This document shows, one piece after another, positions 42,838 to 64,000 of a stretch of 64,000 nucleotides of DNA. Source of the stretch: Mumia sp. Pv4-285. Lineage in GTDB: Bacteria > Actinomycetota > Actinomycetes > Propionibacteriales > Nocardioidaceae. The translations under genes and the position numbers were made by a program. Under the pieces are notes generated by a model. It ran no database searches. It saw only the letters and a program-made list of their open reading frames with translations, and had not been told where the DNA came from. Every line of letters begins with the position of its first letter. Within the stretch, counting starts at the first letter, position 1. Where the stretch lies: NCBI RefSeq assembly GCF_041320275.1, contig NZ_CP162023.1, positions 3,348,001-3,412,000 of the forward strand. Reading direction: 5' to 3'.

Positions 42838-42869
42838 CGCATCACGAAACGAGTTGCATCATGCGCAAC
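42838..42869 (+). promoter_or_regulatory. Composite operator at the MetF-like gene (candidate IclR2 site)
   Basis: CGCATCACGAA, 4 bp, then GTTGC-ATCATGC-GCAAC (42853-42869). The same two-part element with identical spacing occurs at 59657-59688. A -10-like TAGACT lies upstream at 42817-42822, so the element covers the mRNA start and the ATG at 42861. This position fits repression by roadblock. Confidence 0.65.
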
Positions 42870-43706
42870 CCGGCCGTTCGCCGTACGTTGGTCCGCCTGC
42901 TCGAGCACGCGCGCTTCGAGGTGCTGCCCACCCCGTCGACCGAGGCGAAGGTCGTCGAGCACGTGCCGCTCGAGATCCCCGTCACGGTGACTGCTTCGCC
43001 GACCAAGGGGCTGCAGGCGACCCTGGAGCTGGCCGAGCGCCTGGCTGTGCGCGGCTACACGACCGTCCCCCACCTCGCGGCGCGGATGGTGAGCGGTCGC
43101 GCGGAGCTCGTCGAGATCTGCGAGCGCCTGAGGTCGGCCGGGATCACCCGGGTCTTCGTCCCCGGCGGCGACGCCGATCCGACCGGCGACTACCCGGACG
43201 CGCTCGCGCTGCTCGAGGACCTCGCGGGCCTGGGCCACCCGTTCGAGCAGGTCGGCATCACCGGCTATCCCGAGTCCCACCCGACGATCCACGACGACCT
43301 CACCGTGCAGGCCATGTGGGACAAGCGCCGGTACGCGACGCACGTGGTGAGCAACCTCAGCTTCGACCCCGCAGTGATCCGGGTCTGGATCCAGCGGATG
43401 CGCAGCCGCGGCGTCACGATGCCCCTGCTGCTGGGGATGCCCGGTCCGGTCGACCGCACCAAGCTGCTCTCCATGGCGACCAAGATCGGCGTCGGCGAGT
43501 CCACGCGTTTCCTGGCCAAGAACAAGGGCACGTTCGCCCGGCTTGCCGCGCCGGGCGGGTTCACCGGTGAGCGTTTCCTCCTCAAGTGCGCTCCCACGCT
43601 GAGCGAGCCGACGTCCCTGGTCGAGGGCCTGCACGTCTTCACGTTCAACCAGATCGCGGAGACCGAGGCGTGGCGGCGCGACCTGCTCGATCGCCTCCAC
43701 CAGTGA
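42861..43706 (+). CDS. Methylenetetrahydrofolate reductase-like protein (MetF family)
   Basis: 281 residues of the MetF TIM-barrel family. VTVTASPTKGLQATLELAERL and TTVPHLAARMVSGRAELVEICERL align with the substrate-binding start, and VFVPGGDADPTGDYPDAL and VGITGYPESHPTIHDDLTVQAMWDKRRYATHVVSNLSFDP with the FAD and folate regions. In this district it most likely runs in the oxidative direction, converting methyl-THF from betaine demethylation to methylene-THF (inference). There is no clear Shine-Dalgarno sequence, and the start overlaps a palindromic operator. Confidence 0.85.
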   Translation: MRNPAVRRTLVRLLEHARFEVLPTPSTEAKVVEHVPLEIPVTVTASPTKGLQATLELAERLAVRGYTTVPHLAARMVSGRAELVEICERLRSAGITRVFVPGGDADPTGDYPDALALLEDLAGLGHPFEQVGITGYPESHPTIHDDLTVQAMWDKRRYATHVVSNLSFDPAVIRVWIQRMRSRGVTMPLLLGMPGPVDRTKLLSMATKIGVGESTRFLAKNKGTFARLAAPGGFTGERFLLKCAPTLSEPTSLVEGLHVFTFNQIAETEAWRRDLLDRLHQ

Positions 43707-43726
43707 CGCCGCCCGCCGGCGGGTGG

Positions 43727-44386
43727 TCAGCGCAGCAGGTCGGCCAGCGAGGCCTCGAGCCGCGCGTCGCCCGTCTCGACGATGCGGAGCGGCAGGCCGA
43801 TCTTGTCCGCGGCGCGCGCGGCGAGGGCACGCAGCTCGTCGTCGGGTTCCTGGGCCAGCCAGATCACGCGCGAGTACTGACCGAAGTAGGCGTCGCGCAG
43901 CTCCGGCCACCGGTCGAGCCCGAGCTCGCGCTCCACCGTGCGCGCGAACGAGCGTACGAGGAAGTCGGTGAGCAGGTAGGTGCCCGGCTGCTCCTCGAAG
44001 AACCGCTCGAGCCGGTCGGGGCCCGCGTACACGTCGTAGCAGTGCAGTCCCGGCAACCGCGCCAGCCCGAGCTCGTCGCACACGGCGTCGAGGGCGCCGT
44101 ACGTCCCGCAGTCGGCGTAGCCCACGGCCACCCGCGGGTACGTGTCGCGCAGCCGCTCGGCGAGAGCACGGACCTCGGCCGCGATCAGCTGGGGCTGGTT
44201 GTGCAGCAGCGGCGGCAGCGGATGCACGTCGACCGGCCAACCGCGGCGAGCGACGATCGCGGCACACGGCTGCGCGATCGCGCCGCAGGCGATGAGCGCC
44301 GTCCTCGGTCCGGGCTCCGCCGTCCTAGAAGGAGAGCTGGTCGACGAACTTGTCGTTGAAGTCGGCGCGGTCGGAGAGCTCGACAT
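43727..44386 (-). CDS. DUF1638 protein of the corrinoid methyltransferase cluster
   Basis: 219 residues. The DUF1638 core is clear: TALIACGAIAQPCAAIVARRGWPVDVHPLPPLLHNQPQLIAAEV, VGYADCGTYGALDAVCDELG, LPGLHCYDVYAGPDRLERFFEEQPGTYLLTDFLV. Conserved Cys residues suggest metal or cofactor contact. DUF1638 genes are often found beside MttB/RamA-type methyltransferase genes; the role is unknown. No start codon exists after the upstream stop, so the ATG at 44386 and a 62-bp overlap with the RamA-like gene seem unavoidable. The first 25 Ser/Thr-rich residues are read in another frame of that gene. Confidence 0.82.
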   Translation of the reverse strand: MSSSPTAPTSTTSSSTSSPSRTAEPGPRTALIACGAIAQPCAAIVARRGWPVDVHPLPPLLHNQPQLIAAEVRALAERLRDTYPRVAVGYADCGTYGALDAVCDELGLARLPGLHCYDVYAGPDRLERFFEEQPGTYLLTDFLVRSFARTVERELGLDRWPELRDAYFGQYSRVIWLAQEPDDELRALAARAADKIGLPLRIVETGDARLEASLADLLR

Positions 44387-46232
44387 ACGTCACCTCCTTG
44401 AGCAGCGTCCGCGCGCCCTCCCGTTCACGTGTCGAGAGGAGCGCCATCTTGGCTCCCTCGCCGGCGACGTTGCCGGCGGCGACGATCCTCAGCACCGGGA
44501 GCTTCGGGACGAGACCGATCCGAACCGCGGAGGCGGCCGAGAGGTAGCTGCCGAACGAGCCGGCGAGCAGCACCTGCTGGACGTCGCGGTGCTCGATCCC
44601 CAGCTCTTCGAGCAGGAGCGACCAGCCCGTCGAGATCGCCGCCTTGGCGAACTGCAGCTCGCGGACGTCGCGCTGCGAGAGCACCACGCTCTCCTCCGGA
44701 GGGGCGCCGGGCGTCGGCCGGTGCAGGACGAACACCCGCTCCTGCCCGACCTGGGTGAGCCGGTCGGCGAGCGCCGGCGCGACCTCCTTGGCGACCTCGG
44801 CGGCGACGAACCGTCCGCTCGCGTCGAGGAGCCCCACCCTGACCAGCTCGGCGACCACGTCGACGAGCCCGGACCCGCACAGTCCCCGCGGCTCGACGTC
44901 TCCGATGACCCCGAGCTCGACGGTCTCCCCCAGCTTGACGACCTCGATCGCCCCGTCGGCGGCACGCATGCCGCAGCGGATCGCCCCACCCTCGAACGCG
45001 GGGCCGGCCGGCGCTGCCGTCGCGAGGATGCGGTCACCGTCGCTCACCACGATCTCGCAGTTGGTCCCGACGTCGATGAACAGGCGCGTGCGCTTGTCAC
45101 GGTCCATGCCGGTGGCCAGCATCCCCGCGACGATGTCGCCTCCGACGTAGGCGCCGAGCGCGGGGAAGACGGTCACGCGGGCCCGGGGGTGCAACGACAG
45201 ACCGAGCTCGGAGGCCGGCAGGTCGGGGGGCTGCGCGGTGGACATCACGAACGGCGCCATGCCCAGCGGCTCGGGATCGACGCCCAGGGCGAGTGCGGTC
45301 ATCGTCGCGTTGCCGGCCAGGGCGACCTCGTAGACGGTCGCCGGATCGACGCCGCCCTCCGCGCACACCTGCGTCGCGAGCGTCGACAACGTCTCGCACG
45401 CGGCCGTACGCAGACGCCCGAGAGCGTCGGGATCCATCATCGTCGCGCTGATCCGAGTGATGACGTCGCCACCGAAGGGCTGCTGCCGGTTGAGCATCGA
45501 AGCGACCGCGACCGGTGTGCCCGTGGTGACGTCGAGCAGCGTCGCCACCACGGTCGTCGTACCGAGATCGATGGCCAGCGCGTGCTGCGTCTTGGTGGTG
45601 TCACCCGGCTCCACGTCGACCAGCGCTTCGTCGACCACCACGGCCGTGACCTTGAAGTCGGCCGAGCGCAGAACCGTCGGAAGCCGCCGCAGCACGTGCA
45701 GGTCGGGCACCGGCTCGAGGTCGTCGATCGCGTCGAGGAGCCTCGCCAGATCGGTGCGCTGGTCGGCGAGCGTCGGCTCGTCGAGCTCGACGTACCGCTT
45801 CTGGACGGCCGGCCGCAGGATCACCTGCCGTCCGACACCGACGGTCGCCGCCTTCGGTCGCGTGGTGAGCGGCGGGACGTCGACCGCCACGTCGCGGGTC
45901 GTGTTCACCAGGCAGGCGAGGCGCCATCCGTCGTCGAGCTGCTCGCGCGTGAACGTCCGAACGTCGTGCCGGGTCACGGGACTCGGGCCGTCGATGCGGA
46001 CCTTGCACTTGTGGCACGTGCCGTGCCCTCCGCAGGTGGAGTCGATCGCGATGCCGTTCCACGACGCCGCGTCGAAGACGGTCACGCCCGGCGGGACGCG
46101 CACCTGGCGCGCCGTCGTACGGTCGGGGTCCGCGTCGCGCACCGTGAACGACAGCTCGACCCGGCCCGTGCCGTCATGGGCGGGCCCCTCGTCCCCGGCC
46201 CCGTCCAGCACGGTCTGCGGCGACTCGGTCAC
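44325..46232 (-). CDS. RamA-like ATPase, reductive activator of corrinoid proteins
   Basis: 635 residues. An N-terminal [2Fe-2S] domain has Cys67, Cys73 and Cys76 in STCGGHGTCHKCKV and Cys107 in RLACLVN. A middle segment and a C-terminal ASKHA ATPase domain follow (HALAIDLGTTTVVATLLD, LFIDVGTNCEIVVSDGD, GLCGSGLVDVVAEL, VLLAGSFGSYLSAASA). It would reduce inactive Co(II) corrinoid back to Co(I) using ATP. The GTG at 46232 overlaps the pterin methyltransferase stop (GTGA); the frame is open far upstream but only as noise. Lacks the 4Fe-4S motif of archaeal RamA. Confidence 0.9.
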   Translation of the reverse strand: MTESPQTVLDGAGDEGPAHDGTGRVELSFTVRDADPDRTTARQVRVPPGVTVFDAASWNGIAIDSTCGGHGTCHKCKVRIDGPSPVTRHDVRTFTREQLDDGWRLACLVNTTRDVAVDVPPLTTRPKAATVGVGRQVILRPAVQKRYVELDEPTLADQRTDLARLLDAIDDLEPVPDLHVLRRLPTVLRSADFKVTAVVVDEALVDVEPGDTTKTQHALAIDLGTTTVVATLLDVTTGTPVAVASMLNRQQPFGGDVITRISATMMDPDALGRLRTAACETLSTLATQVCAEGGVDPATVYEVALAGNATMTALALGVDPEPLGMAPFVMSTAQPPDLPASELGLSLHPRARVTVFPALGAYVGGDIVAGMLATGMDRDKRTRLFIDVGTNCEIVVSDGDRILATAAPAGPAFEGGAIRCGMRAADGAIEVVKLGETVELGVIGDVEPRGLCGSGLVDVVAELVRVGLLDASGRFVAAEVAKEVAPALADRLTQVGQERVFVLHRPTPGAPPEESVVLSQRDVRELQFAKAAISTGWSLLLEELGIEHRDVQQVLLAGSFGSYLSAASAVRIGLVPKLPVLRIVAAGNVAGEGAKMALLSTREREGARTLLKEVTYVELSDRADFNDKFVDQLSF

Positions 46233-47094
46233 GAGACGGCAGCCGCCTTCGCCCGGTGTGCGGCGATCCAGGCCATGCCCCACTCGTCGTGGTCCAGGAA
46301 GACGTCGGCCGCCTTGACCGCCTCGACGATCTGCGGGGTCCGCGTGTCCATGATCGCGCTGGTCAGCCCCGCCGTCATCGCCATCGGCAGCCAGGCGGCA
46401 CCCAAGGTGTGCCGGTCGGGCATGCCGAAGGACGTGTTGGACGCACCGCAGGTCATGTTGACCCCGTGCTCCGCGCGGATCCGACGCATCGTCTCCATCG
46501 TCACGAGCGAGGTGGTCGTGTCGGCACCGATCGGCATGGCCAGCGGGTCGATGACGATGTCGGCCTTGTCGATGCCGTACTCCTCGGTGGCCACCCGGAT
46601 GATCTTCGCGGTGAGGTCGAGCCGCTTGTCGGCCTCCATCGGGATCTCGTCCGCGTCGTTGGGCAACGCGATGATCGCGGCGTCGTAACGCTTCACGAGC
46701 GGCAGGATCGCGGCGAGCCGGTCGTCCTCGGCCGTGACCGAGTTGACCAGGGCACGGCCCTCGTAGGCGGACAGACCCGCCTCCAGCGCCTCGACCACCG
46801 AGGAGTCGATGCAGATCGGGAGGTCGGTGATCGACTGGATCAGACGGATCGCAGAGGCCAGCAGCGCGGGCTCGTCGGTGAGCGGGACGCCCATGTTGAC
46901 GTCGAGGACGTCGGCGCCGCCCTCGACCTGTGCCTTCACGTCCTTCTCGATCGCCGAGAGGTCGCCTGCGCGCAGCTGCTCCTGGAAGATGCGGCGACCT
47001 GTCGGGTTGATCCGCTCGCCGATCAGGCAGAAGCGCTGGTCGTGCCCGATCACGACCTCCTTGGTCGCCGACCGCAGGACCGTGTGGAGGCTGC

Positions 47095-47098
<4 letters not shown>
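46229..47098 (-). CDS. Pterin-binding methyltransferase (methylcorrinoid:tetrahydrofolate, MtgA-like)
   Basis: 289 residues of the DHPS/MeTr TIM-barrel family. LIGERINPTGRRIFQEQL and KAQVEGGADVLDVNMGVPLTDEP are the pterin-binding signatures; LPICIDSSVVEALEAGL and NMTCGASNTSFGMPDRH follow. It would move the methyl group from the corrinoid protein to tetrahydrofolate. The ATG overlaps the corrinoid protein stop and the stop overlaps the RamA-like start. The same fold serves the reverse direction in acetogens, so the direction here is inferred from context. Confidence 0.9.
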
Positions 47099-47760
<662 letters not shown>

Positions 47761-47778: not shown

Positions 47779-48570
47779 CTAGTGGGTCAGCCTTGGTGAG
47801 TCAGCCATCTGTGACTTGGTCGGACCACGCAGCAGCGTGGACAGCTGGGCCGCGTGGTACGCCAGGTGCTTGCCGAGCTCGTCGAGCCGGTCCTCGAGCC
47901 GCGCGGTCGGCCCCGAAAGGCCGAGTGCCGCCACGACGTCGCCGCGCACTCCCTCGACCGGGACGGCGACGCCGGTCAGCCCGATCTCGAGCTCGCCGTC
48001 GGTGAGGGCCCACCCGCGCTTGCGGGTCAGCACGCCGTCGCGGCGCAGGCCCTCGTACGAGGTGATGGTCGCGTCGGTCGACGCCTCGAGCGGGCCGGTC
48101 GGCATGGCCAGGGCACCCCACGCGTACAGCACCTTGCCGAGGGCCGAGCAGTGCGGCGGGACCTCGACCTCCGTCCAGTCACGCGTGCCGAGGAGATAGC
48201 GGCTGTCCACCTGGGCGACCTGCACGACCTTCTCGCCGCGGGCCACCGAGAGGTGCACGGTCTCTCCGGTCTCGTCCCCGATCTGCTCCATGGCAGGGCG
48301 GGCCAGACGGACGAGCTCCTCCCACGGATCGTGACGCGCCGCGTACAGCCAGAAGAGGCTCCCCGCGACGAAAGAGCCGTCGGCGTCGCGCTCGACCAGC
48401 CCCGTGCGCTCGAGGGCGGCGAGCATCCGCGACGTCGTCGACTTGGCCAGCCCGCTGGCGTCCTGGAGCTCGGCGAAGGTGAGCGGCTCGTCGGCGTGCA
48501 CGACCGTCGACACGAGCTGAGCAGCACGGTCAACCGCCTGCGTCCCGCTGCCGGTGCTTGCGCCGCTCAC
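47779..48570 (-). CDS. IclR-family regulator (IclR1) of the B12 demethylation module
   Basis: 263 residues. The HTH domain, AVDRAAQLVSTVVHADEPLTFAELQDASGLAKSTTSRMLAALERTGLVERD, is followed by the IclR effector domain (AALGKVLYAWG-like SALGKVLYAWGALAMP, GVAVPVEGVRGDVVAALGLSGPTARL). The GTG at 48570 follows GAAGGAGA; a start 39 bp upstream would include that site. It leads the minus-strand operon iclR1-mtgC-mtgA-ramA-DUF1638 and is divergent from mttB across a perfect palindrome. Confidence 0.9.
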   Translation of the reverse strand: MSGASTGSGTQAVDRAAQLVSTVVHADEPLTFAELQDASGLAKSTTSRMLAALERTGLVERDADGSFVAGSLFWLYAARHDPWEELVRLARPAMEQIGDETGETVHLSVARGEKVVQVAQVDSRYLLGTRDWTEVEVPPHCSALGKVLYAWGALAMPTGPLEASTDATITSYEGLRRDGVLTRKRGWALTDGELEIGLTGVAVPVEGVRGDVVAALGLSGPTARLEDRLDELGKHLAYHAAQLSTLLRGPTKSQMADSPRLTH

Positions 48571-48605
48571 TCGCTTCTCCTTCGTCCGCCCCTTCTGCAA
48601 GGGTC

Positions 48606-48637
48606 CCATGATGTGGAACTATGGTCCCACATCATGG
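48606..48637. promoter_or_regulatory. Perfect 11-bp palindrome between iclR1 and mttB
   Basis: CCATGATGTGG (48606-48616) and CCACATCATGG (48627-48637) are exactly complementary with a 10-bp spacer. TATGGT in the spacer region (48620-48625) could be the mttB -10 box. The site is 36 bp from the iclR1 start and 20 bp from the mttB start, ideal for joint control. Confidence 0.8.
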
Positions 48638-48656: not shown

Positions 48657-50096
48657 ATGTTCCGCAACAAGATGCCGCGCTACGAGGTGCTCTCCGAGGA
48701 AGCGATGGCGACGCTGGACGGCGGGTGGCGCCGGCTCGTCAGCGAGATCGGCGTCGAGTTCATGGATGCGCGGGCACGCGACCTCTTCGCCGCGGCGGGC
48801 CAGCGGGTCGAGGACGACACCGTCTTCCTCGACCCGGACTTCGTCCTGGAGCAGGTGGCCAAGGCTCCGCGCGAGTTCGACATCCAGGCACGCAACCCCG
48901 ACAACACCGTGCACATCGGCGGTGACGCCATGGCGTTCAGCGCGGTCTACGGACCCCCGTTCGTCCGCCAGGGTGACGTGCGCCGTGACGGGACGATGGA
49001 CGACTTCCGCAACTTCGCGCGACTCGCGCAGGGCTTCGGCGTGCTGGACTCCGCGGGCGGTGTCGTCACCGAGCCCAACGACGCCCCGCTCGACAGCCGG
49101 CACCTCGACATGACGTACGCGCTCCAGACGCTGACCGACAAGATCTACATGGGCAACGTCGTGTCCGGGGTCAACGCCCGCGACACGCTCGCGATGACCG
49201 ACATCCTCTTCGGCTCGCGGGAGGCGATCGAGCAGACGCCGGCCCTGATCTCGCTGATCAACTGCAACTCGCCGCTGCGGTGGGACGATCGGATGCTCGA
49301 AGCCCAGTTCGAGTACTCGTCGGCCAACCAGCCGGTCGTGCTCACCCCGTTCATCCTGATGGGCGCGATGTCGCCGGTGACGGTCCCTGCCGCGCTGGTG
49401 CAGCAGATCGCCGAGGCGCTGTCGGGCATCGCGCTCTCGCAGCTGATCCGCCCGGGCTGCCCGGTGGTGTTCGGCTCGTTCCTCTCCAACATCGACATGC
49501 AGTCCGGGTCTCCGACGTTCGGCACCCCGGAGTCGGGCATCGGGCTTCTCTGCACGGGCCAGATCGCCCGGCACTTCGGGCTTCCCTTCCGCACCGGCGG
49601 CGGGCTCACCTCCTCTCAGGTCCCCGACGCACAGGCCGGGTACGAGGCGATGATGACGCTGCTGCCGACGTTCCTCGCCGGCGCGAACTGGGTCATGCAC
49701 TCCGCGGGCTGGCTCGAGGGCGGCCTCGTGTCCGGCTACGAGAAGTTCATCATCGACTGCGAGCTGATCCAGATGCTCCAGCACGAGTTCACCCCGCTGG
49801 AGATCGACGAGGCCTCGCTCGCGTTCGACGCTCACACCGAGGTCGGCCACGGCGGCCACTTCCTCGGTGCGATGCACACCATGGAGCGCTTCCGCACCTG
49901 CTTCTACCGCCCGTTCCTCTCCTCCTCGGAGAACTACGAGCGCTGGATGCGTGGCGGCGCGAAAGACACCGCGGCCCGAGCGACGGACATCTATCAGAAG
50001 CGGCTGGAGGAGTACGAGCAGCCGCCGCTCGACGACGCGATCCGCGAGGAGCTCGAGGCGTACGTCGTACGCCGGCGCGCGGAGCTCGGCGACTGA
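48657..50096 (+). CDS. MttB-family corrinoid methyltransferase, probable glycine betaine methyltransferase (MtgB-like, no pyrrolysine)
   Basis: 479 residues. MttB-superfamily landmarks include YEVLSEEAMATLDGGWRRLVSEIGVEF, GVLDSAGGVVTEPNDAPLDSRHLDMTYALQTLTDKIYMGNVVSG, FGLPFRTGGGLTSSQVPDAQAGYEAMMTLLPTFLAGANWVMHSAGWLEGGL. There is no in-frame amber codon, so it is of the non-pyrrolysine type, whose studied members demethylate quaternary amines (glycine betaine, proline betaine, carnitine). The ATG at 48657 follows AGGAGGGG. Divergent from the corrinoid-protein operon and upstream of choline-oxidation genes, so glycine betaine is the best guess. Confidence 0.88.
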   Translation: MFRNKMPRYEVLSEEAMATLDGGWRRLVSEIGVEFMDARARDLFAAAGQRVEDDTVFLDPDFVLEQVAKAPREFDIQARNPDNTVHIGGDAMAFSAVYGPPFVRQGDVRRDGTMDDFRNFARLAQGFGVLDSAGGVVTEPNDAPLDSRHLDMTYALQTLTDKIYMGNVVSGVNARDTLAMTDILFGSREAIEQTPALISLINCNSPLRWDDRMLEAQFEYSSANQPVVLTPFILMGAMSPVTVPAALVQQIAEALSGIALSQLIRPGCPVVFGSFLSNIDMQSGSPTFGTPESGIGLLCTGQIARHFGLPFRTGGGLTSSQVPDAQAGYEAMMTLLPTFLAGANWVMHSAGWLEGGLVSGYEKFIIDCELIQMLQHEFTPLEIDEASLAFDAHTEVGHGGHFLGAMHTMERFRTCFYRPFLSSSENYERWMRGGAKDTAARATDIYQKRLEEYEQPPLDDAIREELEAYVVRRRAELGD

Positions 50097-51281: not shown

Positions 51282-51320
51282 TGTTCCACCTCCGCAGGTC
51301 AGTGCTGCGCGGGTCGCAGT

Positions 51321-51372
51321 GTTGCGCTCTCAACAACGCAACGTGCGATACGCAACACGCTTGGTCTAGTCT
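51321..51372. promoter_or_regulatory. iclR2/purU divergent promoter with repeated GCAAC half-sites
   Basis: GTTGC (51321-51325) pairs with GCAAC (51338-51342). A further GATACGCAAC at 51347-51356 equals the right half of the betB site. TAGTCT at 51367-51372 is a -10 box 7 bp before the iclR2 GTG at 51380, so that mRNA is probably leaderless and the half-sites cover its -35 region. Confidence 0.6.
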
Positions 51373-51379
51373 CGCTATC

Positions 51380-52220: not shown

Positions 52221-52256
52221 GTTGCGCGAGATGCACCGTGTTGCGGGATACGCAAC
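52221..52256 (+). promoter_or_regulatory. Two GTTGC-N7-GCAAC sites before the betaine aldehyde dehydrogenase gene
   Basis: GTTGC-GCGAGAT-GCACC (52221-52237, one mismatch) and GTTGC-GGGATAC-GCAAC (52240-52256, perfect) lie in tandem, the second 31 bp before the start. The second also extends to 6-bp arms. The 7-bp spacer is the same as at 42853 and 59672. Confidence 0.7.
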
Positions 52257-52287
52257 GCGGCGAACTCCGCGGGGAGTGAGGAGCCGG

Positions 52288-56528: not shown

Positions 56529-58528
56529 GCGTGACGACGGCGCGGCCCCGCCTCGACCCGGACACGTCCGCGCCTCCGCAGCCGCCGCGCAGGACGCTCC
56601 CCCGCTGGGCGTGGGCGTTGATCGTCATCGGTGTGTGGATCCTGATCTGGGTGTTCACCAAGGGGCAGGACACGCTCCAGATGCCGCAGCGCGCCCACAC
56701 CGACGTGCAGCAGGCACTCACCGAGTTCCGCGACGCCGTGCTCGCCAGCCGTGACACCAACCCGCTCGTCGAGCTCACCTATCAGATCGGCGCCTGGTTC
56801 GTCGACGTCGTCGACTGGCTCCAGCGCCTCGTGTCGATCCCTGACTTCCCGAGGCCGGTGCCGCAGATCGGGTGGCTCGGTGTCGTCGCGCTCGCGACCT
56901 GGGCCGGTCTGGCGGCGGCCGGCTGGCGGATCGCGATCCTGGTCGGCGCGTCGTTCCTCTCCTTCGGCCTGTTCGGCTACTGGTCGGACTCGATGGACCT
57001 GCTGATCATCACGGGTGTCGCGGTCACGATCGCGATCCTGATCGGACTTCCCCTCGCGGTGTACTACGGCACGGCCGGACGCACCGGGGTGAAGGTCGTC
57101 ACCACCCTCCTGGACCTGATGCAGACGATGCCGACCTTCGTCTATCTCAGCCCGGTCGTGCTCTTCTTCGGCATCGGCGCCTCGGCTGCCGTCGTGTGCA
57201 CCGTCATCTACGCCGTACCCCCGATCATCCGGATCGCCGGCCACGGCATCCGCAACGTCTCGAGGACGACCATCGAGGCGACCGACTCGTCCGGCCAGAC
57301 GCGGTGGCAGCGGCTGACGAAGGTGCAGCTACCGATGGCGCGCTCCACCATCGTCGTGGGCATCAACCAGACGACGATGGCGGCGCTCTCGATGGCGACG
57401 ATCGCCGCCTTCGTCGACGGCCCGGGCCTCGGCCAGCCGGTGCTGTCGGCGCTGGTGCGCAACGACGTCGGCAACGCGTTCGTCCCCGGTGCCCTGATCG
57501 TGGTGATCGCGGTGATGCTCGACCGGACGACCACCGCTGCCAGCGAGGCGTCCGAGAAGGCAGCCCGCGGCCAGATCGACCTCCGCATGCGCCGAATGGT
57601 CCTGGCAGCCACAGGGGTGGCCGCGCTCGTTGCGGTGTGGGTCTCGCGGCAGTACGTCTGGGCGGCGGAGTTCCCCGAGACCTCGTGGGGTGTGACGGTC
57701 GCCGACGGCGTGGACTCGTTCTTCGCCTGGATCACCGAGACGTTCGACGGGCTGACCCAGGCGGTCGCGGACGCGGTGACGTACGGGTTGCTGAACCCGC
57801 TCCAGGAGCTGATCGCGGAGTCGCCGTGGTGGTTGACGGCGCTGGCGATCCTCGCCCTGGCGCTGGTTTTCGGGGGCGTCCGAGCGCTGCTGCCCACCGT
57901 CGTCTGCCTGACGGGCCTGCGCGTCTTCGGCCTCTGGCACGACGCGATGGTCACCCTGACGATGGTGCTGGTCGCCACGGTGCTCGTGATGGCGCTGGCC
58001 GTGGTGCTCGGTGTGTGGATGGCGCGACGCCGGGCGGTCGACCTCGTCGTCCGGCCGTTCCTCGACGCCGGCCAGACCATCCCCCCGTTCGTCTACCTGA
58101 TCCCGGTGCTCGCTCTCTTCGGCCCGTCGCGTTTCACCGCGATCATCGCCGGTGTCGTCTACGCGGCGCCGGTCGCGATCAAGCTCGTGGCCGACGGCGT
58201 CAGAGGCGTCTCCACCACCACGCTGGAGGCTGCCCGCTCCACAGGTTCGACCACCTGGCAGGAGATCACGAAGGTCCAGCTCCCGATGGCACGGGACTCG
58301 CTCGTGCTGGCCGCCAACCAAGGCCTCCTGTACGTCCTCTCCATGGTGGTGATCGGTGGCATGGTCGGTGCCGGCGCGCTCGGCTACGACATCGTGCTGG
58401 GCGCCTCCCGCTCCGAGGAGTGGGGCAAGGGAGCCGCCGCTGGGATCAGCATCGTCCTCCTCGGGATCATGCTCGACCGGATCATGCGCGCCTCAGCCCA
58501 GGAGGACGCGGACTCACACCGGGCGTGA
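56525..58528 (+). CDS. proW: Double-domain glycine betaine ABC transporter permease (two fused ProW units)
   Basis: 667 residues, about twice a normal ProW. The two halves are homologous BPD permease domains. The first has [39 protein letters not shown] (about residues 255-295) and the second [39 protein letters not shown] (about 570-610), each being the EAA-type coupling loop. They are joined by a linker around residues 350-430. One polypeptide could thus make the whole membrane channel. The start overlaps the proV stop (ATGA/GTGA style). Confidence 0.9.
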
Positions 58529-58583: not shown

Positions 58584-59594
58584 ATGCCGAACGGATGGAA
58601 ACGAGCCGGACGCAAGCACGGCGGCTGGAAGCAGGGAGGGCGACTGGCGGCCGCAGCGTGCGCGATGGCCCTGATCGCGGGCTGCGGCGGCGGCGGCTCG
58701 ATCGACGACCAGACGCAGGAGAACGAGTCGAAGGCCTCCGGCGACTGCGGTGAGGTCAACATGGCGATCAACCCGTGGGTCGGGTACGAGGCCAGCGCCT
58801 ACGTCGTCGGCACGGTGGCGCAGGAGGAGCTGGGCTGCACGATCAACTACAAGGAGCTCAAGGAGGACGTCTCCTGGCAGGGCTTCGGCACGGGTGAGGT
58901 GGACATCGTCATCGAGGACTGGGGGCACCCCGACCTCGAGAAGAAGTTCTTCGCCGAGAGCGGCGACGGGAGCGCGGAGGACTTCGGCCCGAACGGCAAC
59001 GTCGGGATCATCGGCTGGTTCGTCCCGCCGTGGCTGGCCGAGGAGCACCCGGACATCCTCGACTACAAGAACCTCAACAAGTACGCCAAGGAGTTCTCGA
59101 CGAGCGAGTCCGGCGGCAAGGGCCAGTTCCTGGGCGCGGACCCGTCGTACGTGCAGTTCGACGAGGCCATCGTCAACAACCTCGATCTCGACTTCAAGGT
59201 GGTCTTCTCCGGCAGCGAGGCAGCGACCATCACGGCGTTCCAGCGGGCCGAGAAGAACAAGGAGTTCCTGATCGGCTACTTCTACGAGCCGCAGTGGCTC
59301 TTCGCCGACATCGACCTGCAGCGGGTGAAGCTGCCGGAGTACACCGACGGCTGCCAGGACGATCCGGCGAAGGTGGACTGCGACTACCCCGAGACCGAGC
59401 TGAAGAAGATCGTGTCGACCTCGTGGGTCGACGACGGCGGGCCTGCGGTCGACCTGGTCAAGAACTTCACGTGGACCAACGACGACCAGAACCTCGTGGC
59501 GAAGTACATCTCCGAGGACGGGATGGCGCCTGAGGAGGCAGCGAAGAAGTGGATCGACGAGAACCAGGACAAGGTCGACGCCTGGATCGGTTGA
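58584..59594 (+). CDS. proX: Glycine betaine-binding lipoprotein (ProX/OpuAC family)
   Basis: 336 residues. A basic N-terminus and hydrophobic stretch (LAAAACAMALIAGC) end in a lipobox with Cys, so the protein is anchored outside the membrane. The mature part, EVNMAINPWVGYEASAYVVGTVAQEELGC and VDIVIEDWGHP, then GIIGWFVPPWLAEEHPDILDYKNLNKY, matches the type II betaine-binding fold; Trp/Tyr residues of this type form the cation-binding box. AAGGAG precedes the ATG. Last gene of the betB-betA-proVWX operon, closed by a strong stem-loop. Confidence 0.92.
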   Translation: MPNGWKRAGRKHGGWKQGGRLAAAACAMALIAGCGGGGSIDDQTQENESKASGDCGEVNMAINPWVGYEASAYVVGTVAQEELGCTINYKELKEDVSWQGFGTGEVDIVIEDWGHPDLEKKFFAESGDGSAEDFGPNGNVGIIGWFVPPWLAEEHPDILDYKNLNKYAKEFSTSESGGKGQFLGADPSYVQFDEAIVNNLDLDFKVVFSGSEAATITAFQRAEKNKEFLIGYFYEPQWLFADIDLQRVKLPEYTDGCQDDPAKVDCDYPETELKKIVSTSWVDDGGPAVDLVKNFTWTNDDQNLVAKYISEDGMAPEEAAKKWIDENQDKVDAWIG

Positions 59595-59656: not shown

Positions 59657-59688
59657 CGCATCACGAACTACGTTGCATCATACGCAAC
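59657..59688 (+). promoter_or_regulatory. Composite operator before the dimethylglycine dehydrogenase operon (candidate IclR2 site)
   Basis: CGCATCACGAA, 4 bp, then GTTGC-ATCATAC-GCAAC (59672-59688). The arms, spacer length and upstream block match 42838-42869 almost base for base. It lies 19 bp before the ATG. Confidence 0.7.
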
Positions 59689-59706
59689 AGATACCCGGGA
59701 GTGTCC

Positions 59707-62232
59707 ATGGCCAACGTCCCTACCCAGGCCAAGGTCGTCGTCATCGGCGCCGGCATCGTCGGCAACAGCCTCGTGCACCACCTGGCGCGGCTCGGCTGGC
59801 GCGACATCGTGCAGCTCGACAAGGGCCCGCTCCCGAACCCCGGGGGGTCCACAGGGCACGCCTCGAACTTCATCTTCCCCGTGGACCACTCCCGCGAGAT
59901 CACCGATCTGACGCTGGACTCGGTCCGTCAGTACAAGGAGATGGGTGTCTTCACGGAGTCCGGCGGCTTCGAGCTGGCACGCACCGAGGAGCGCATGGAG
60001 GAGCTTCGCCGCCGGATGTCCAGCGCGAAGGCCTGGGGCATCGACGCCGAGCTTGTCGACCCGGCGTTCGTGAAGGAGAAGGTGCCCTTCATCGAGACCG
60101 ACCAGTTCATCGGCGCGTTCTGGACGCCCAGCGTCGGCGTGGTCGACTCGCTGCGGGCCGGCACCATCATGCGCGAGTCGGCGCTCGAGGCCGGGGCGCT
60201 GACCGTGGTCGCAGGCGTCGAGGTGACCGGGCTCGACGTCGAGGACGGCCGCATCCGCCGGGTGCGCACCACCGACGGCGACATCGAGGCCGAGCACGTC
60301 GTGATCGCCTGCGGCGTGTGGAGCCCCAGGATCGGCGCGATGGCCGGGGTCTCGATCCCGCTCACCCCCGCCGTGCACCAGATGATCAGCGTGGGGCCGT
60401 GCCCCCAGCTGGCGGGATCCGAAGGCGAGATCAGCTTTCCGATCGTCCGCGACATGGACACCTTCTGCTACGAGCGTCAGCACGGTGCCGACATGGAGGT
60501 CGGCTCGTACGCCCACCGCGCGATCCTCTACGAGCCCGACGAGATCCCCTCGATCGAGCAGGCCAAGCTGTCACCCACCGAGATGCCCTTCACGTCGGAC
60601 GACTTCGACCCGCAGCTCGAGCAGGCGTACGAGCTCATGCCCGAGCTGCTCGGCGCCGAGGGTGCGGAGATGCGCTACGCCATCAACGGCCTGCTGTCGC
60701 TCACCTGCGACGGCAGCCCGATCCTCGGCGAGAGCCACGTCAAGGGGCTGTGGACCGCAGCAGCCGTCTGGATCAAGGAGGGCCCGGGCGTGGGCCGCGC
60801 CGTCGCCGAGTGGATGGTGAACGGCCACTCCGAGATCGACGTCAGCCACAGCGACATCGCCCGCTTCCACCCGCACCAGCTGCGACGCGAGCACACCAAA
60901 CTCCGCACGAGCGAGGCGTTCATCAAGACGTACGGCATCGTGCACCCCTCCGAGCAGTACGAGTCGGACCGCCCGCAGCGGCTCGCTCCGATGCACGACT
61001 CACAGCAGAAGCTCGGGGCGGTCTTCTTCGAGACCGGCGGCTGGGAGCGCCCGCACTGGTACGACACCAACGCCGCTCTCCTCGACGACTACGGCGACGC
61101 CGTGATGCCCCGCGACCACGAGTGGGACGCGCGCTGGTGGAGCCCCATCATCAACGCCGAGCACCTGCGGATGCGCGAGGCCGCGGGCGTGATCGACCTG
61201 ACGGCGTTCGAGGTCTTCGACATCGAGGGCCCCGGCGCGCTCGCCGCCGTCCAGGTGACCTGCGTCGCCCAGTGCGACGTGGCGGTCGGCAAGGTCGTCT
61301 ACACGCCCGTGCTCGACGCGGCCGGGGGTTTCAAGTCCGACCTCACCGTGATGCGGCTCGGCGACGAGCGCTTCCGTGTCGTCACCGGCGCTGCGCACGG
61401 GCCGGCCGACCGGCAGTGGTTCGCCGACCACGTCCCGGACGACGGCGCCACCACGCTCACGTCCCGGTCCGACGACACCTCCACGATCGGCCTGTGGGGC
61501 CCGCGGGCTCGCGACATCCTCTCCTCGCTGACCTCCGACGACGTCCGTGACAGCGGATTCGGGTTCCTCACGTGCCGTGAGGTCCAGGTGGCCGGGACGA
61601 CCGTGCTCGCCTCGCGGATCTCGTACGTGGGCGAGCTCGGCTGGGAGCTGTACGTCGCCGCGGACGAGGCCGCGGCCGTCTGGGACGCGCTGCTCGAGGC
61701 CGGGGGCCCGCACGGCGCCGTCCCGGTCGGCATCGGCGTGTACGGCACGACCGGCCGGATCGAGAAGGGCTACCGCGCGTTCGGGTTCGAGCTGGACGCC
61801 GAACGCAGCATCGTCGAGGCAGGGATGCAGCGCCCGAAGGTGAAGTCCGCCGAGTTCGTCGGGCGGGACGCGTACGTCGCACAGCGGGCTCGGCTGGAGT
61901 CCGGCGACGGTCCGGACACGGTGCTGTGCACGATGGTCGTCGACGACCACACGTCGTCGTCGGGGGTGAAGCGCTACATGCTCGGCGGCGAGCCGATCCT
62001 CACCCGTGACGGCGGCACGCTGACCGACGGCCACGGCCACCACCCGTACGTCACCACCGCGGGTTCCGCACCGTCGTTGGGCAAGCACCTGCTGCTCGCC
62101 TACCTTCCGCCGGAGCACGCGCGGATCGGCAACGAGCTCGCCGTCTCCTACATGGAGGAGCTGTATCCGGTGACGGTCCGGTCGGTGGACGCGACCGGAC
62201 TGTGGGACCCGGCGAACGAGAGGATCCGCTGA
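59707..62232 (+). CDS. FAD-dependent dimethylglycine (or sarcosine) dehydrogenase with GcvT domain
   Basis: 841 residues. The N-terminal FAD oxidoreductase domain (about 1-390) has KVVVIGAGIVGNSLVHHLARLG and a His in GGSTGHASNFIFP, at the position of covalent flavin attachment in dimethylglycine dehydrogenase. A linker (FAO_M-like) is followed by a C-terminal GcvT/aminomethyltransferase domain (about 430-840: LRMREAAGVIDLTAFEVFDIEGPGA, ISYVGELGWELYV, GVYGTTGRIEKGYRAFG). It would oxidise dimethylglycine and hand the methyl carbon to THF. The ATG at 59707 follows GGGAG; a GTG two codons upstream is possible. Confidence 0.88.
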   Translation: MANVPTQAKVVVIGAGIVGNSLVHHLARLGWRDIVQLDKGPLPNPGGSTGHASNFIFPVDHSREITDLTLDSVRQYKEMGVFTESGGFELARTEERMEELRRRMSSAKAWGIDAELVDPAFVKEKVPFIETDQFIGAFWTPSVGVVDSLRAGTIMRESALEAGALTVVAGVEVTGLDVEDGRIRRVRTTDGDIEAEHVVIACGVWSPRIGAMAGVSIPLTPAVHQMISVGPCPQLAGSEGEISFPIVRDMDTFCYERQHGADMEVGSYAHRAILYEPDEIPSIEQAKLSPTEMPFTSDDFDPQLEQAYELMPELLGAEGAEMRYAINGLLSLTCDGSPILGESHVKGLWTAAAVWIKEGPGVGRAVAEWMVNGHSEIDVSHSDIARFHPHQLRREHTKLRTSEAFIKTYGIVHPSEQYESDRPQRLAPMHDSQQKLGAVFFETGGWERPHWYDTNAALLDDYGDAVMPRDHEWDARWWSPIINAEHLRMREAAGVIDLTAFEVFDIEGPGALAAVQVTCVAQCDVAVGKVVYTPVLDAAGGFKSDLTVMRLGDERFRVVTGAAHGPADRQWFADHVPDDGATTLTSRSDDTSTIGLWGPRARDILSSLTSDDVRDSGFGFLTCREVQVAGTTVLASRISYVGELGWELYVAADEAAAVWDALLEAGGPHGAVPVGIGVYGTTGRIEKGYRAFGFELDAERSIVEAGMQRPKVKSAEFVGRDAYVAQRARLESGDGPDTVLCTMVVDDHTSSSGVKRYMLGGEPILTRDGGTLTDGHGHHPYVTTAGSAPSLGKHLLLAYLPPEHARIGNELAVSYMEELYPVTVRSVDATGLWDPANERIR

Positions 62233-62987
62233 TGGTCGACGTGCTCGTGTGCGTGAAGCGCGTCGTGGACTCCTCCAGCGAGGTGGTCCTGACCGAGGAC
62301 GCGCAGTCGGTCGACGGACGCTTCGCGGGGTTCACGATGAGTGCGCACGAGGAGTGTGCGGTCGAGCTCACCGTCCAGCTGACTGCGGACGCCGGGACTG
62401 CTCGCGTCATGACGCTCGGTGATGCCGACGCGGTCGAGCAGCTGCGCCACGCACTCGCCGTCGGCTGCTCCGACGCGACGCACGTGGTCGCGGACGCGAA
62501 CGCGTTCGGGCCGGCCGACGTCGCACGGGAGATCGCCGCCGTGGTGCACGACCACGACACGCAGCTGGTCCTGCTCGGCAACGACGCCGCAGACAGCGGT
62601 GACTTCCAGGTCGGCATCCGACTCGCCTACGAGCTCGGATGGCCCGTGGTCAACGGCGCCAGCACGGTCTCGGTCGCCGACGGGACGGTGACCGCGTCCG
62701 GCACGGGGCCCGACGGGCACGAGACGTACCGTGTCCCGCTCCCGGCGGTCGTCACGGTGCTCGAGGGTGGCATCGAGCCGCGGTACCCGACCGTGCCCGG
62801 CCGGATGAAGGCGAAGCGGGTCCCGATCGAGGAACGGCAGCCCACCACCGAGCCGACCGGTCCTTCCCGGGTCCGGCTGCTGCGTCCGCCGCCTGCGCCG
62901 TCGGTCGTCCAGGTCCTCGGTGAAGGTGCCGATGCGGCGCCGGCCGTGGTCGACGTGCTCGAGCAGCTGGGGGTGCTTTCCCGATGA
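62232..62987 (+). CDS. Electron transfer flavoprotein beta subunit
   Basis: 251 residues. EtfB features: VDVLVCVKRVVDSSSEVVL, HEECAVELTVQL, VMTLGDADAVEQLRHALAVGCSDATHVV and the AMP-binding region VLLGNDAADSGDFQVGIRLAYELGWPVV. The recognition loop is followed by RMKAKRVPIEERQP. The ATG overlaps the dehydrogenase stop (TGATG) and the stop overlaps etfA, so it is a dedicated electron acceptor for the dimethylglycine dehydrogenase. Confidence 0.9.
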   Translation: MVDVLVCVKRVVDSSSEVVLTEDAQSVDGRFAGFTMSAHEECAVELTVQLTADAGTARVMTLGDADAVEQLRHALAVGCSDATHVVADANAFGPADVAREIAAVVHDHDTQLVLLGNDAADSGDFQVGIRLAYELGWPVVNGASTVSVADGTVTASGTGPDGHETYRVPLPAVVTVLEGGIEPRYPTVPGRMKAKRVPIEERQPTTEPTGPSRVRLLRPPPAPSVVQVLGEGADAAPAVVDVLEQLGVLSR

Positions 62988-63964
62988 TCCTGGTGCTGGT
63001 GGAGACCTCGCTCGAGGGCGAGGCGACCGAGGTGTCCCTGGAGGCACTGACGCTCGCGCGCTCGCTCTCGACGGCGGGGAGCGACCGCCCGGTCGATGCC
63101 GTCGTCGTCGGTCAACCGCCTGACGAGCTGCTCGCGACGCTGGGATCGTACGGCGTCCGGCGGGTGCACGCGCTGACCGGAGAGGCATTCACGTCGTACG
63201 CCGCCGCCGCGTGGGCGTCGGGTCTGCTGTCCGTACGGCACGGGGCCGGCTCGGACACCGTGATGGCGGCAGGGACGCCGCGCGGAAACGAGGTGATGGC
63301 CCATGTGGCGGCGCGGGCAGGAGTGGCGATGGCTGCGAACGTGCTTCGGGTCGAAGGGCTGACGCCGTTCGTCGTCACCCGGCAGGTCGTCGGTGGCGCG
63401 GCGCTCGAGGAGATGCGGCTGGCGGACCGGCTCGCGGTGCTCACGGTCGCCGGGCACGCCGTCGAGCCGACTCCCGCCGCGGACCCTGGATCGGCCGAGC
63501 TGGTCGTCGAGACACCGGAGATCGCGGACGCCGACCTCGTGGCTCGCGTCGTGTCGACCGAGGCACCCGAGCCGGACCTGTCGGGCGACCTCACGTCGGC
63601 CCGGGTCGTCGTCGGAGCCGGCAGAGGCGCGGGGTCGGCCGACGGGTTTGCCGACCTGCTCGAGCTCACCGACCTGCTCGGTGCCTCGCTCGGCGTCTCA
63701 CGGGTCGTCACGTCGCTGGGCTGGCGCCCGCATCACGAGCAGGTCGGCCAGACGGGCTCACGCATCTCCCCCGACCTCTACGTCCCCTGCGGGATCAGCG
63801 GCGCCATCCAGCACTGGGCGGGGTGCTCGTCGGCCAAGGCGATCCTGGCGATCAACACCGACGCGGAGGCGCCGATGGTCACCCGGGCGACCTATGCCGT
63901 GATCGGCGACCTCCACGAGGTCGTACCCGCGATCAACGCCGAGATCCGCAGACGGCGCGGCTGA
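62984..63964 (+). CDS. Electron transfer flavoprotein alpha subunit
   Basis: 326 residues. The C-terminal FAD domain is unmistakable: VVVGAGRGAGSADGFADLLELTDLLGASLGVSR, then HHEQVGQTGSRISPDLYVPCGISGAIQHWAGCSSAKAILAINTD. The N-terminal domain (ILVLVETSLEGEATEVSLEALTLARSL) is shorter and more divergent than in housekeeping EtfA. It carries electrons on to ETF:quinone oxidoreductase. ATGA overlap with etfB. The last 36 bp of the window hold nothing recognisable. Confidence 0.9.
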   Translation: MILVLVETSLEGEATEVSLEALTLARSLSTAGSDRPVDAVVVGQPPDELLATLGSYGVRRVHALTGEAFTSYAAAAWASGLLSVRHGAGSDTVMAAGTPRGNEVMAHVAARAGVAMAANVLRVEGLTPFVVTRQVVGGAALEEMRLADRLAVLTVAGHAVEPTPAADPGSAELVVETPEIADADLVARVVSTEAPEPDLSGDLTSARVVVGAGRGAGSADGFADLLELTDLLGASLGVSRVVTSLGWRPHHEQVGQTGSRISPDLYVPCGISGAIQHWAGCSSAKAILAINTDAEAPMVTRATYAVIGDLHEVVPAINAEIRRRRG

Positions 63965-64000
63965 CCACGCCGTGCCGCCTGCGGCCAGTTGACCTCAGCG

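What the first reader, a model, noticed from the sequence alone, without database searches (positions are those of the whole stretch)
42861..64000. Complete B12-dependent betaine demethylation route in an apparent aerobe
One 21-kb district encodes choline and betaine uptake, choline to betaine oxidation, an MttB-family methyltransferase, corrinoid protein, pterin methyltransferase, RamA-like activator, DUF1638, a MetF-like reductase, PurU and a dimethylglycine dehydrogenase with its own Etf. Studied MtgB-type systems come from anaerobes, while aerobes mostly use a Rieske betaine monooxygenase, which is absent from this window. The neighbouring O2-dependent PaaABCDE and monooxygenase genes argue for an aerobic host. 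A corrinoid Co(I) cycle running in air, with a dedicated activator, would be unusual.
Basis: partly seen in the sequence, partly recalled or inferred. Interest (0 to 1): 0.85.

Follow-up and report, generated by a model that had tools for sequence, protein, structure and literature searches.

The report
Aerobic B12-dependent betaine demethylation gene island
A Gram-positive bacterium of the Nocardioides family carries, in one 21-kb island, a vitamin-B12-based system that probably strips a methyl group from the osmolyte glycine betaine in air; the same kind of system was reported in marine bacteria in 2025, so this is an actinobacterial version rather than a new kind of chemistry.

Summary
The gene set is there, intact and conserved. 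The host is probably a Mumia species. Beside a non-pyrrolysine MttB lie corrinoid protein, pterin methyltransferase, RACo activator, DUF1638 and a MetF-like enzyme. All six core neighbours recur in 52 of 55 full-flank relatives, and BetAB or DMGDH in 50 of 55. The genome has no PF00848 oxygenase but has MetH and cobalamin-synthesis genes including CobN, so the module looks catabolic. Its MetF is nearest to the SYK-6 MTHFR, a type said to oxidise methyl-THF (PMC13001107). I found a conserved palindrome between iclR and mttB and moved the mttB start to 48657.

'Unusual' does not hold: PMC12478193 (PNAS 2025) showed aerobic MtgBCD with RamA and DUF1638 in Ruegeria pomeroyi. The substrate here is inferred: the MttB lies in an actinobacterial clade with no assayed member in my tree, and the four predicted betaine-site residues it keeps are kept by 47 of 61 rows. 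Verdict: new variant of a known kind.

The parts
42861..43706 (+). MetF-like methylenetetrahydrofolate reductase, nearest to the SYK-6 (oxidation) type
   Evidence: PF02219 25.6 bits; profile of 36 sequences hits 7xg9 E 3.8e-40; AlphaFold2 pLDDT 86.3; Foldseek ranks 1-3 are SYK-6 MTHFR, TM 0.80-0.81
43727..44386 (-). DUF1638 protein, inferred partner in corrinoid re-activation
   Evidence: PF07796 74.7 bits; in 55 of 55 full-flank loci; invariant C34, C93, C103, C116, H62, H115 in 42 sequences
44325..46232 (-). RACo/RamA-like ATP-dependent reductive activator with N-terminal 2Fe-2S domain; start GTG 46232 inferred
   Evidence: Fer2, RACo_linker, Raco_middle, RACo_C_ter in one frame; cysteine motif CGGHGTCHKC; starts
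46229..47098 (-). pterin-binding methyltransferase (MtgA/MtgD role: methyl-Co to THF)
   Evidence: PF00809 103 bits; NF005719 methyl-THF:corrinoid/iron-sulfur protein methyltransferase 305.8 bits, cut-off 259
47095..47760 (-). corrinoid protein (MtgC role), motif DVHDIG
   Evidence: PF02310 106.1 and PF02607 57 bits; best NCBIfam model NF047996 MtgC 194.6 bits, below its cut-off 370; DxHxxG at residue 102
47779..48609 (-). IclR-family regulator, divergent from mttB
   Evidence: IclR_C 97.6 bits, HTH_IclR 52.8 bits; 54 of 55 loci
48611..48632 (.). palindrome ATGTGGAAC-N4-GTCCCACAT, probable IclR operator
   Evidence: only exact match in the window; with one mismatch 1.37 matches are expected in the window by chance, so the case rests on conservation: a matching site within 160 nt upstream of mttB in 48 of 80 loci and one site elsewhere, 2 matches in shuffled loci
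48657..50096 (+). MttB-superfamily (non-pyrrolysine) methyltransferase, MtgB role; 479 aa with corrected start
   Evidence: PF06253 623 bits (longer frame from 48621); start evidence; residues aligned to DhMtgB Y94, N199, R309, H345 conserved
50403..51281 (-). PurU formyl-THF deformylase
   Evidence: TIGR00655 342.6 bits, cut-off 285.95; 41 of 55 loci
51302..52144 (+). second IclR-family regulator
   Evidence: IclR_C 160.9 bits; 48 of 55 loci
52222..53757 (+). betaine-aldehyde dehydrogenase-like (BetB)
   Evidence: TIGR01804 best NCBIfam hit, 603.9 bits, below cut-off 668.6
53794..55497 (+). choline dehydrogenase (BetA)
   Evidence: TIGR01810 835.5 bits, cut-off 732.1
55494..56528 (+). ABC ATPase of an OpuA-type importer
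   Evidence: PF00005 120.1 bits; ATG 55494 with AGGAGG upstream
56525..58528 (+). ABC permease, two BPD_transp_1 stretches in one chain
   Evidence: PF00528, 2 stretches; ChoW-like 338 and ProW-like 323.9 bits, both below cut-off
58584..59594 (+). OpuAC substrate-binding protein
   Evidence: PF04069 121.7 bits; ATG 58584
59701..62232 (+). dimethylglycine dehydrogenase-like (DAO + FAO_M + GCV_T)
   Evidence: PF01266, PF16350, PF01571, PF08669
62202..62987 (+). EtfB, electron acceptor of the DMGDH-like enzyme (inferred); exact start uncertain
   Evidence: PF01012 76.8 bits; alternative starts
62984..63964 (+). EtfA
   Evidence: PF00766 98.5 and PF01012 89.1 bits

Best explanation
A dedicated catabolic glycine-betaine demethylation pathway working in an aerobe. 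Choline or betaine is imported; BetA and BetB oxidise choline to betaine. The MttB-family enzyme moves one methyl from betaine to Co(I) of the corrinoid protein, leaving dimethylglycine. The pterin methyltransferase passes the methyl to tetrahydrofolate. The SYK-6-type MetF oxidises methyl-THF to methylene-THF, which FolD-type steps and PurU carry on to formate. Dimethylglycine goes to the DMGDH-like flavoenzyme, with EtfBA taking electrons to respiration. When Co(I) is oxidised to Co(II), as must happen often in air, the RACo-type activator (2Fe-2S and ATP), with DUF1638 as partner, reduces it back. An IclR protein at a palindrome controls the divergent mtg genes. Shown here: genes, domains, conservation, residues, palindrome, absence of a PF00848 oxygenase. 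Inferred: substrate, direction of flow, regulation, and every catalytic step.
For: Gene content. Of 55 loci with about 10 kb on both sides, 52 keep all six core partners; 41 have BetA+BetB, 20 DMGDH, 50 one or the other; 9 have DMGDH without BetA, tying mttB to dimethylglycine independently of choline genes. The four residues predicted by docking to hold betaine in DhMtgB (PMC6855144, passages) are conserved and all differ in the Pyl TMA enzyme. No PF00848 protein; of seven Rieske proteins the two that look like oxygenases are VanA_C and KshA_C types. MetH with activation domain elsewhere and canonical MetF elsewhere. CobN, CobF, CobA-, CobI-, CobJ-, CobM-, CbiE-, CobO- and CobT-type genes in the genome. 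MetF nearest to SYK-6 MTHFR. Homologous modules in Paracoccus and S. meliloti pSymB; Azoarcus mttB near betAB and a choline-binding protein. Genetic proof of the aerobic principle in R. pomeroyi (PMC12478193).
Against: I know of no assayed enzyme in the window's MttB clade; DhMtgB lies outside it at 39.7% identity. The four betaine-site residues are kept by 47 of 61 rows, including paralogues whose neighbours do not point to betaine, so they are weak evidence for this one substrate. The fifth predicted contact, F353, is G here, as in 57 of 61 rows. The corrinoid protein scores below both NCBIfam MtgC cut-offs. Five of 55 full-flank loci have neither BetAB nor DMGDH within 10 kb. PF00848 oxygenases occur in 12 of 24 MttB-positive relatives, so there is no broad mutual exclusion. 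The sarcosine step is unassigned, and no formate dehydrogenase passed its cut-off.
Confidence: 0.77

Rival explanations
1. Same machinery, but the physiological methyl donor is another quaternary amine (carnitine, gamma-butyrobetaine, proline betaine or choline itself), and the betaine genes are neighbours for osmoprotection.
For: No assayed member in the clade, which lies apart from DhMtgB. The four betaine-site residues are shared by 47 of 61 rows and F353 is G. E. limosum MttB homologues use several donors through one corrinoid protein (PMC12478193 discussion). 5 of 55 loci lack BetAB and DMGDH.
Against: DMGDH, whose substrate would be the product of betaine demethylation, is near mttB in 20 of 55 loci, in 9 of them without BetA; 20 is a lower limit because in the window it begins 9.6 kb beyond mttB, at the edge of the stretch held for the relatives.
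Confidence: 0.16
2. The corrinoid module mainly serves methionine synthesis, as in Phaeobacter, with betaine as an optional methyl source.
For: In R. pomeroyi MtgC and MtgD serve both methionine synthesis and betaine demethylation (PMC12478193). S. meliloti has a homocysteine methyltransferase 5.6 kb beyond mttB.
Against: The genome has full-length MetH with its own activation domain and a canonical MetF. No homocysteine methyltransferase domain was found among the island's genes. The cluster's MetF resembles the type that oxidises methyl-THF (PMC13001107 passage).
Confidence: 0.04
3. A silent or relic cluster, or one used only when oxygen is scarce.
For: Patchy in the genus: 2 of 6 genomes have it. 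Co(I) is oxygen-sensitive (recalled).
Against: Frames without internal stops, strong conservation across several actinobacterial families, a conserved palindrome. Aerobic function is shown in R. pomeroyi (PMC12478193).
Confidence: 0.03

Closest known systems
MtgBCD of aerobic marine bacteria (Ruegeria pomeroyi; PMC12478193, abstract, results, discussion read)
   Same: MttB-family enzyme, separate corrinoid and pterin-binding proteins, RamA, DUF1638, MetF paralogue for methyl-THF oxidation, no GbcAB, aerobic host. In other genomes the authors also find these genes co-located with later demethylation steps
   Different: There MtgC and MtgD also make methionine, and 108 of 156 MtgBCD genomes lack MetH. 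Here MetH is present, the MttB clade and MetF type are others than those I could compare, an IclR palindrome is added, and the host is an actinomycete
Sinorhizobium meliloti pSymB / Paracoccus mtg clusters (structure 4yyc)
   Same: MttB, B12-binding protein, DUF1638, MetF, pterin methyltransferase and ASKHA activator together; 4yyc MttB 45.4% identical, all four predicted betaine-site residues the same
   Different: Their MetF has no significant BLASTP match to the window's (best E 0.032) and comes with a separate 'methylenetetrahydrofolate reductase C-terminal domain' protein; no BetAB, DMGDH or IclR annotated in the stretches read, though that annotation is incomplete; MttB in a different clade
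MtgABC of Desulfitobacterium hafniense (2qne, 9yce)
   Same: Non-pyrrolysine MttB with Y94, N199, R309, H345 equivalents; corrinoid and pterin-binding proteins
   Different: 39.7% identity, F353 replaced by G, anaerobic host; the window enzyme does not form a clade with it
GbcAB Rieske betaine monooxygenase
   Same: Same net step, betaine to dimethylglycine; a GbcA-like protein (NF058607 203.6 bits, below cut-off 670) lies 2 kb from a DMGDH-like frame in an MttB-negative genome of the same genus
   Different: Oxygenase, no corrinoid; no PF00848 member in the window's genome
Sphingobium SYK-6 MTHFR (7xg9, 7xlf)
   Same: Best sequence-profile and fold match of the cluster MetF; that subfamily is described as preferring methyl-THF oxidation (PMC13001107 passage)
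   Different: Works with a THF-dependent aromatic demethylase rather than a corrinoid system; 26-27% identity

Membership tests
MttB superfamily (PF06253) | full-length domain match | tested here: met
   623 bits, cut-off 25
Pyrrolysine trimethylamine methyltransferase (MttB proper) | in-frame amber/Pyl and TIGR02369 cut-off | tested here: not met
   no internal stop; 274.9 of 525 bits
MtgB glycine betaine:corrinoid methyltransferase | predicted betaine-site residues Y94, N199, R309, H345 | tested here: met
   Y110, N214, R324, H360 in 491-aa numbering; but 47 of 61 rows meet it, and the residues are docking predictions in PMC6855144
MtgB glycine betaine:corrinoid methyltransferase | aromatic residue at 353 | tested here: not met
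   G368; also G in 4yyc and in 57 of 61 rows
MtgB glycine betaine:corrinoid methyltransferase | groups with DhMtgB in a tree | tested here: inconclusive
   DhMtgB lies outside a 58-row group that holds the window enzyme and 4yyc, and joins another long branch; MtpB, MtcB, MtyB not available
MtgB glycine betaine:corrinoid methyltransferase | betaine-dependent methylation of cob(I)alamin | not testable with these tools
   bench assay
MtgC corrinoid protein | B12-binding domains and DxHxxG | tested here: met
   PF02310, PF02607; DVHDIG
MtgC corrinoid protein | NCBIfam NF047996 / NF047995 cut-offs | tested here: not met
   194.6 of 370 and 156.6 of 310 bits; NF047996 is still the best hit
RACo/RamA corrinoid activator | 2Fe-2S domain plus RACo linker, middle and ASKHA domains | tested here: met
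   four Pfam domains in one frame
Aerobic MtgBCD system (R. pomeroyi type) | MttB, MtgC, pterin MT, RamA, DUF1638, MetF paralogue in a genome without GbcA | tested here: met
   aerobic growth itself not tested
Aerobic MtgBCD system (R. pomeroyi type) | coupling to methionine synthesis (no MetH, MtgE present) | tested here: not met
   MetH present; no homocysteine methyltransferase among the island's genes; the paper's own set includes a minority with both
GbcA Rieske betaine monooxygenase | Rieske + Ring_hydroxyl_A protein in the genome | tested here: not met
   0 PF00848 matches in G000
SYK-6-type oxidative MTHFR | closest sequence and fold match among solved MTHFRs | tested here: met
   E 3.8e-40 against 4.5e-09 for the next; Foldseek ranks 1-3
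SYK-6-type oxidative MTHFR | prefers methyl-THF oxidation in assay | not testable with these tools
   bench assay

The most novel reading that the evidence does not exclude
A methionine-uncoupled, purely catabolic aerobic corrinoid demethylation route, widespread in actinomycetes, built from its own MttB clade and an oxidation-type MetF. It stands in for the Rieske GbcA route: one species of the genus carries one, a sister species the other. DUF1638, with its invariant cysteines, is the component that keeps the Co(I) cycle alive in air.
Probability: 0.25. Interest if true: 0.65.

Novelty: new variant of a known kind. Interest (0 to 1): 0.45.

Why it matters
If true, it extends aerobic B12-dependent betaine demethylation from the proteobacteria where it was shown to a common actinomycete group, and makes betaine turnover depend on cobalamin there. 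A single-island version with MetH elsewhere should let the methyltransferase be studied without the methionine auxotrophy that complicates Ruegeria mutants. The contrast inside one genus (MttB here, a GbcA-like oxygenase in a sister genome) gives a natural comparison of the oxygenase and corrinoid routes. DUF1638, tied to RamA since 2018 without a known role, sits in a compact genetic setting here.

Tried and rejected
Mutual exclusion of MttB and PF00848 oxygenases across relatives: not seen. PF00848 is in 12 of 24 MttB-positive and 29 of 74 MttB-negative genomes (my tally of the rows). PF00848 covers many oxygenases, so it is a poor proxy for GbcA.

Betaine-site residues as proof of substrate: weakened on recount. 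The set Y, N, R, H is in 47 of 61 rows of the tree set. I lowered the leading explanation from 0.80 to 0.77 and raised the other-donor rival from 0.13 to 0.16 for this.

DUF1638 function from fold: AlphaFold2 gave a good model (pLDDT 86.6), but Foldseek found no PDB match at E 0.001 (best 1.9e-03, TM 0.24, carbamoyltransferases) and the profile search gave nothing credible. Left open.

MetF of the Paracoccus and S. meliloti clusters as orthologue of the window MetF: BLASTP gives no significant match (best E 0.032).

Shared operator for the whole island: the palindrome occurs only between iclR and mttB in the window, so the BetAB-ABC-DMGDH genes are not shown to share it. The search pattern was written after looking at the sites, so the 48 of 80 is descriptive.

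Sarcosine oxidase alpha: PF01571 hits are a GcvT-type protein, the DMGDH-like enzyme and a weak third; 11 DAO matches at E 1e-12 exist, none assigned to sarcosine.

Formate dehydrogenase: no TIGR01591 match over the cut-off (best 510 of 666.25); not settled.

Literature: no paper in the library held 'trimethylamine methyltransferase' with 'Nocardioides'. In the listings (titles and starts of abstracts) I saw no report of a betaine:corrinoid methyltransferase in Actinomycetota, except that PMC12478193 assigns 5% of ocean mtgC reads to that phylum. The library lacks many subscription papers.

Full report
Where it is. The window is bases 3348001-3412000 of a single-contig 4.65-Mb genome, 69.8% G+C. 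A genome listed as the same genus holds an mttB match at contig 6, base 419051; this is the place of locus L003, Mumia xiangluensis, so the host is very probably a Mumia species (family Nocardioidaceae). Its source is not known to me. That Mumia and Nocardioides are aerobes is recalled, not tested. What I saw agrees: PaaA/PaaC-type (two), PaaD-type and PaaE-like genes in the window, QcrA and cytochrome b genes of a bc1-type complex, VanA_C and KshA_C Rieske oxygenases, and cobalamin genes that include CobN and CobF, which I recall as marks of the aerobic route.

What is there. On the minus strand run IclR (47779-48609), corrinoid protein (47095-47760), pterin methyltransferase (46229-47098), RACo-type activator (44325-46232) and DUF1638 (43727-44386), overlapping or closely spaced like an operon. 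The MetF-like gene (42861-43706, +) converges on it, and mttB (+) diverges from it. Beyond mttB lie purU (-), a second iclR, betB, betA, an OpuA-type ABC importer, a DMGDH-like gene and etfBA (+). The mttB start is most likely ATG 48657: it follows AGGAGG, the earlier ATG 48621 lies inside a palindrome, and two relatives have stops upstream of this methionine.

Conservation. The genome-contig scan kept the best 80 loci of 344 confirmed relatives; by their titles all 80 are actinobacterial. Of the 55 with about 10 kb on both sides, and with identity thresholds that I set per gene (40-70%), DUF1638, RACo, pterin methyltransferase and MtgC are in 55, IclR in 54, MetF in 53, and all six together in 52. 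BetA+BetB are in 41, DMGDH in 20, either in 50, and DMGDH without BetA in 9, five of them Phycicoccus. These nine tie mttB to dimethylglycine without help from choline genes. The DMGDH count is a lower limit: in the window that gene begins 9.6 kb beyond mttB, at the edge of the stretches held. Five loci have neither (L026, L066, L069, L077, L080). Among 98 relatives, 24 have mttB, and 2 of 6 in the genus. In 396 genomes spread over the phylum 62 have any MttB-family match at E 1e-20, but besides the window's genome only one, G305 (58-71%), exceeds 50% identity.

Residues and tree. PMC6855144 (passages read) predicts by docking that Y94, N199, R309 and H345 of D. hafniense MtgB hold betaine, with F353 as a further aromatic contact. 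The first four align with Y, N, R and H in the window enzyme, in 14 of 14 close orthologues in the tree set, in S. meliloti 4yyc and in the Paracoccus and Azoarcus enzymes; the pyrrolysine TMA enzyme has G, C, Y and Y. But 47 of all 61 rows keep the four, among them enzymes whose neighbours do not speak of betaine, so the set says 'not TMA' more than 'betaine'. F353 is G here and in 57 of 61 rows. Identity is 45.4% to 4yyc, 39.7% to DhMtgB and 26.1% to MbMttB. In the tree the window enzyme sits in an actinobacterial clade; 4yyc, at zero distance from the S. meliloti pSymB protein, sits in a second large clade; DhMtgB is outside both, though its exact place is a long-branch join. I know of no assayed enzyme in the window's clade, so betaine as substrate rests mainly on the neighbours.

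The rest of the genome. PF00848 gives no match. Seven Rieske hits exist. Two look like oxygenases and carry VanA_C and KshA_C domains; they resemble a GbcA-like protein only over 51-56 residues. Of the others, one is QcrA, one is a DAO-Rieske fusion, and three are short (and frame lengths). MetH is full length with its activation domain. PF02219 gives the canonical MetF (291.5 bits) plus two weak members, one of them the cluster gene. Seven of nine TP_methylase hits lie in 4.139-4.188 Mb; CobN, CobF, CobI, CbiE (two), CobO, CobT and CobA types pass an NCBIfam cut-off there, while the scanned domain stretches of CobJ (240.3 of 246.35) and CobM (232.6 of 259.65) fall just short. The pathway was not checked gene by gene.

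A sister genome. In an MttB-negative genome of the same genus (G004), a GbcA-like Rieske protein (NF058607 203.6 bits, below the cut-off of 670; nearest solved relatives 3vca, 4qup and carnitine monooxygenase) lies 2 kb from a DMGDH-like frame. Three other genomes of the genus have neither MttB nor PF00848. With six genomes this is an anecdote; across all 98 relatives the two families are not exclusive (12 of 24 against 29 of 74).

Direction of flow. The cluster MetF is barely detectable by Pfam, yet a profile of 36 sequences hits 7xg9 at E 3.8e-40, with the next best at 4.5e-09. The AlphaFold2 model (pLDDT 86.3) has SYK-6 MTHFR as Foldseek ranks 1-3, TM 0.80-0.81. PMC13001107 (passages read) describes the SYK-6 enzyme as the exemplar of a subfamily preferring to oxidise methyl-THF. 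This supports catabolic flow: methyl-THF to methylene-THF and, through PurU, to formate. A formate dehydrogenase was not confirmed.

Regulation. The 22-base palindrome ATGTGGAAC-N4-GTCCCACAT at 48611-48632 is the only exact site in the window; alone it would mean little, since 1.37 one-mismatch matches are expected by chance. A matching site lies within 160 nt upstream of mttB in 48 of 80 loci, with one site elsewhere in all 80; single-base shuffles of the same loci gave 2 matches. The pattern was written after seeing the sites. It is probably the operator of the adjacent IclR protein; binding is not shown.

What is known. PMC12478193 (abstract, results and discussion read) shows by mutants and proteomics that R. 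pomeroyi demethylates betaine in air, with MtgC and MtgD essential, two MttB-family proteins, RamA, DUF1638 and MetF2 more abundant, and that MtgC and MtgD also serve methionine synthesis; it also finds the genes co-located with later demethylation steps in other marine bacteria. PMC5764234 (passages read) found RamA-like and DUF1638 proteins needed for B12-dependent methionine synthesis in Phaeobacter and left DUF1638 without a proposed role. Plasmid records show the same module in Paracoccus and S. meliloti, mttB near betAB and a choline-binding protein in Azoarcus, and mttB near a FAD oxidoreductase with Etf genes in a haloarchaeon. The finding is therefore a variant of a known kind. What differs: an MttB clade without a known assayed member, a SYK-6-type MetF, retained MetH, a palindrome of its own, and an actinomycete host.

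Noticed in passing
L199 (Halomicrococcus gelatinilyticus plasmid), 402-16368: A haloarchaeal plasmid has mttB with a FAD oxidoreductase, EtfBA, formate-THF ligase, a folP gene that reads like a FolC-FolP fusion, and a BCCT transporter: a possible archaeal version.
   Followed up: partly
L196 (Rhodobacter sp. CZR27 plasmid), 351-9461: A GbcA-like oxygenase (NF058607 485.7 bits, below cut-off 670), a reductase gene, a betaine ABC importer and an mttB lie side by side: both routes, or two substrates, in one locus.
   Followed up: partly
L187, L188 (G305); L070 at 19022; L190: MttB paralogues of 56-62% identity in actinobacteria. In three of them (L070, L190, L188) the betaine-site Y and H are replaced (N/Q or S/Q): candidate enzymes for other methylated amines.
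   Followed up: partly
window 43727-44386: DUF1638 has invariant C34, C93, C103, C116, H62 and H115 in 42 sequences, and a confident model with no significant PDB match.
   Followed up: partly
G000 (own genome): Only three GCV_T hits, none a SoxA-type sarcosine oxidase, so the sarcosine-to-glycine step is unassigned.
   Followed up: partly
L122, 1492-3141 (own genome): A DAO flavoprotein with a C-terminal Rieske domain in one chain.
   Followed up: no
L101, 1722-3740 (own genome): An MM_CoA_mutase + B12-binding protein in one chain; another B12 user in this genome.
   Followed up: no
window 41492-42751: Cutinase-family protein just before the island.
   Followed up: no
window 30106-32313: Glucodextranase-N plus glycosyl hydrolase family 15 protein.
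   Followed up: no
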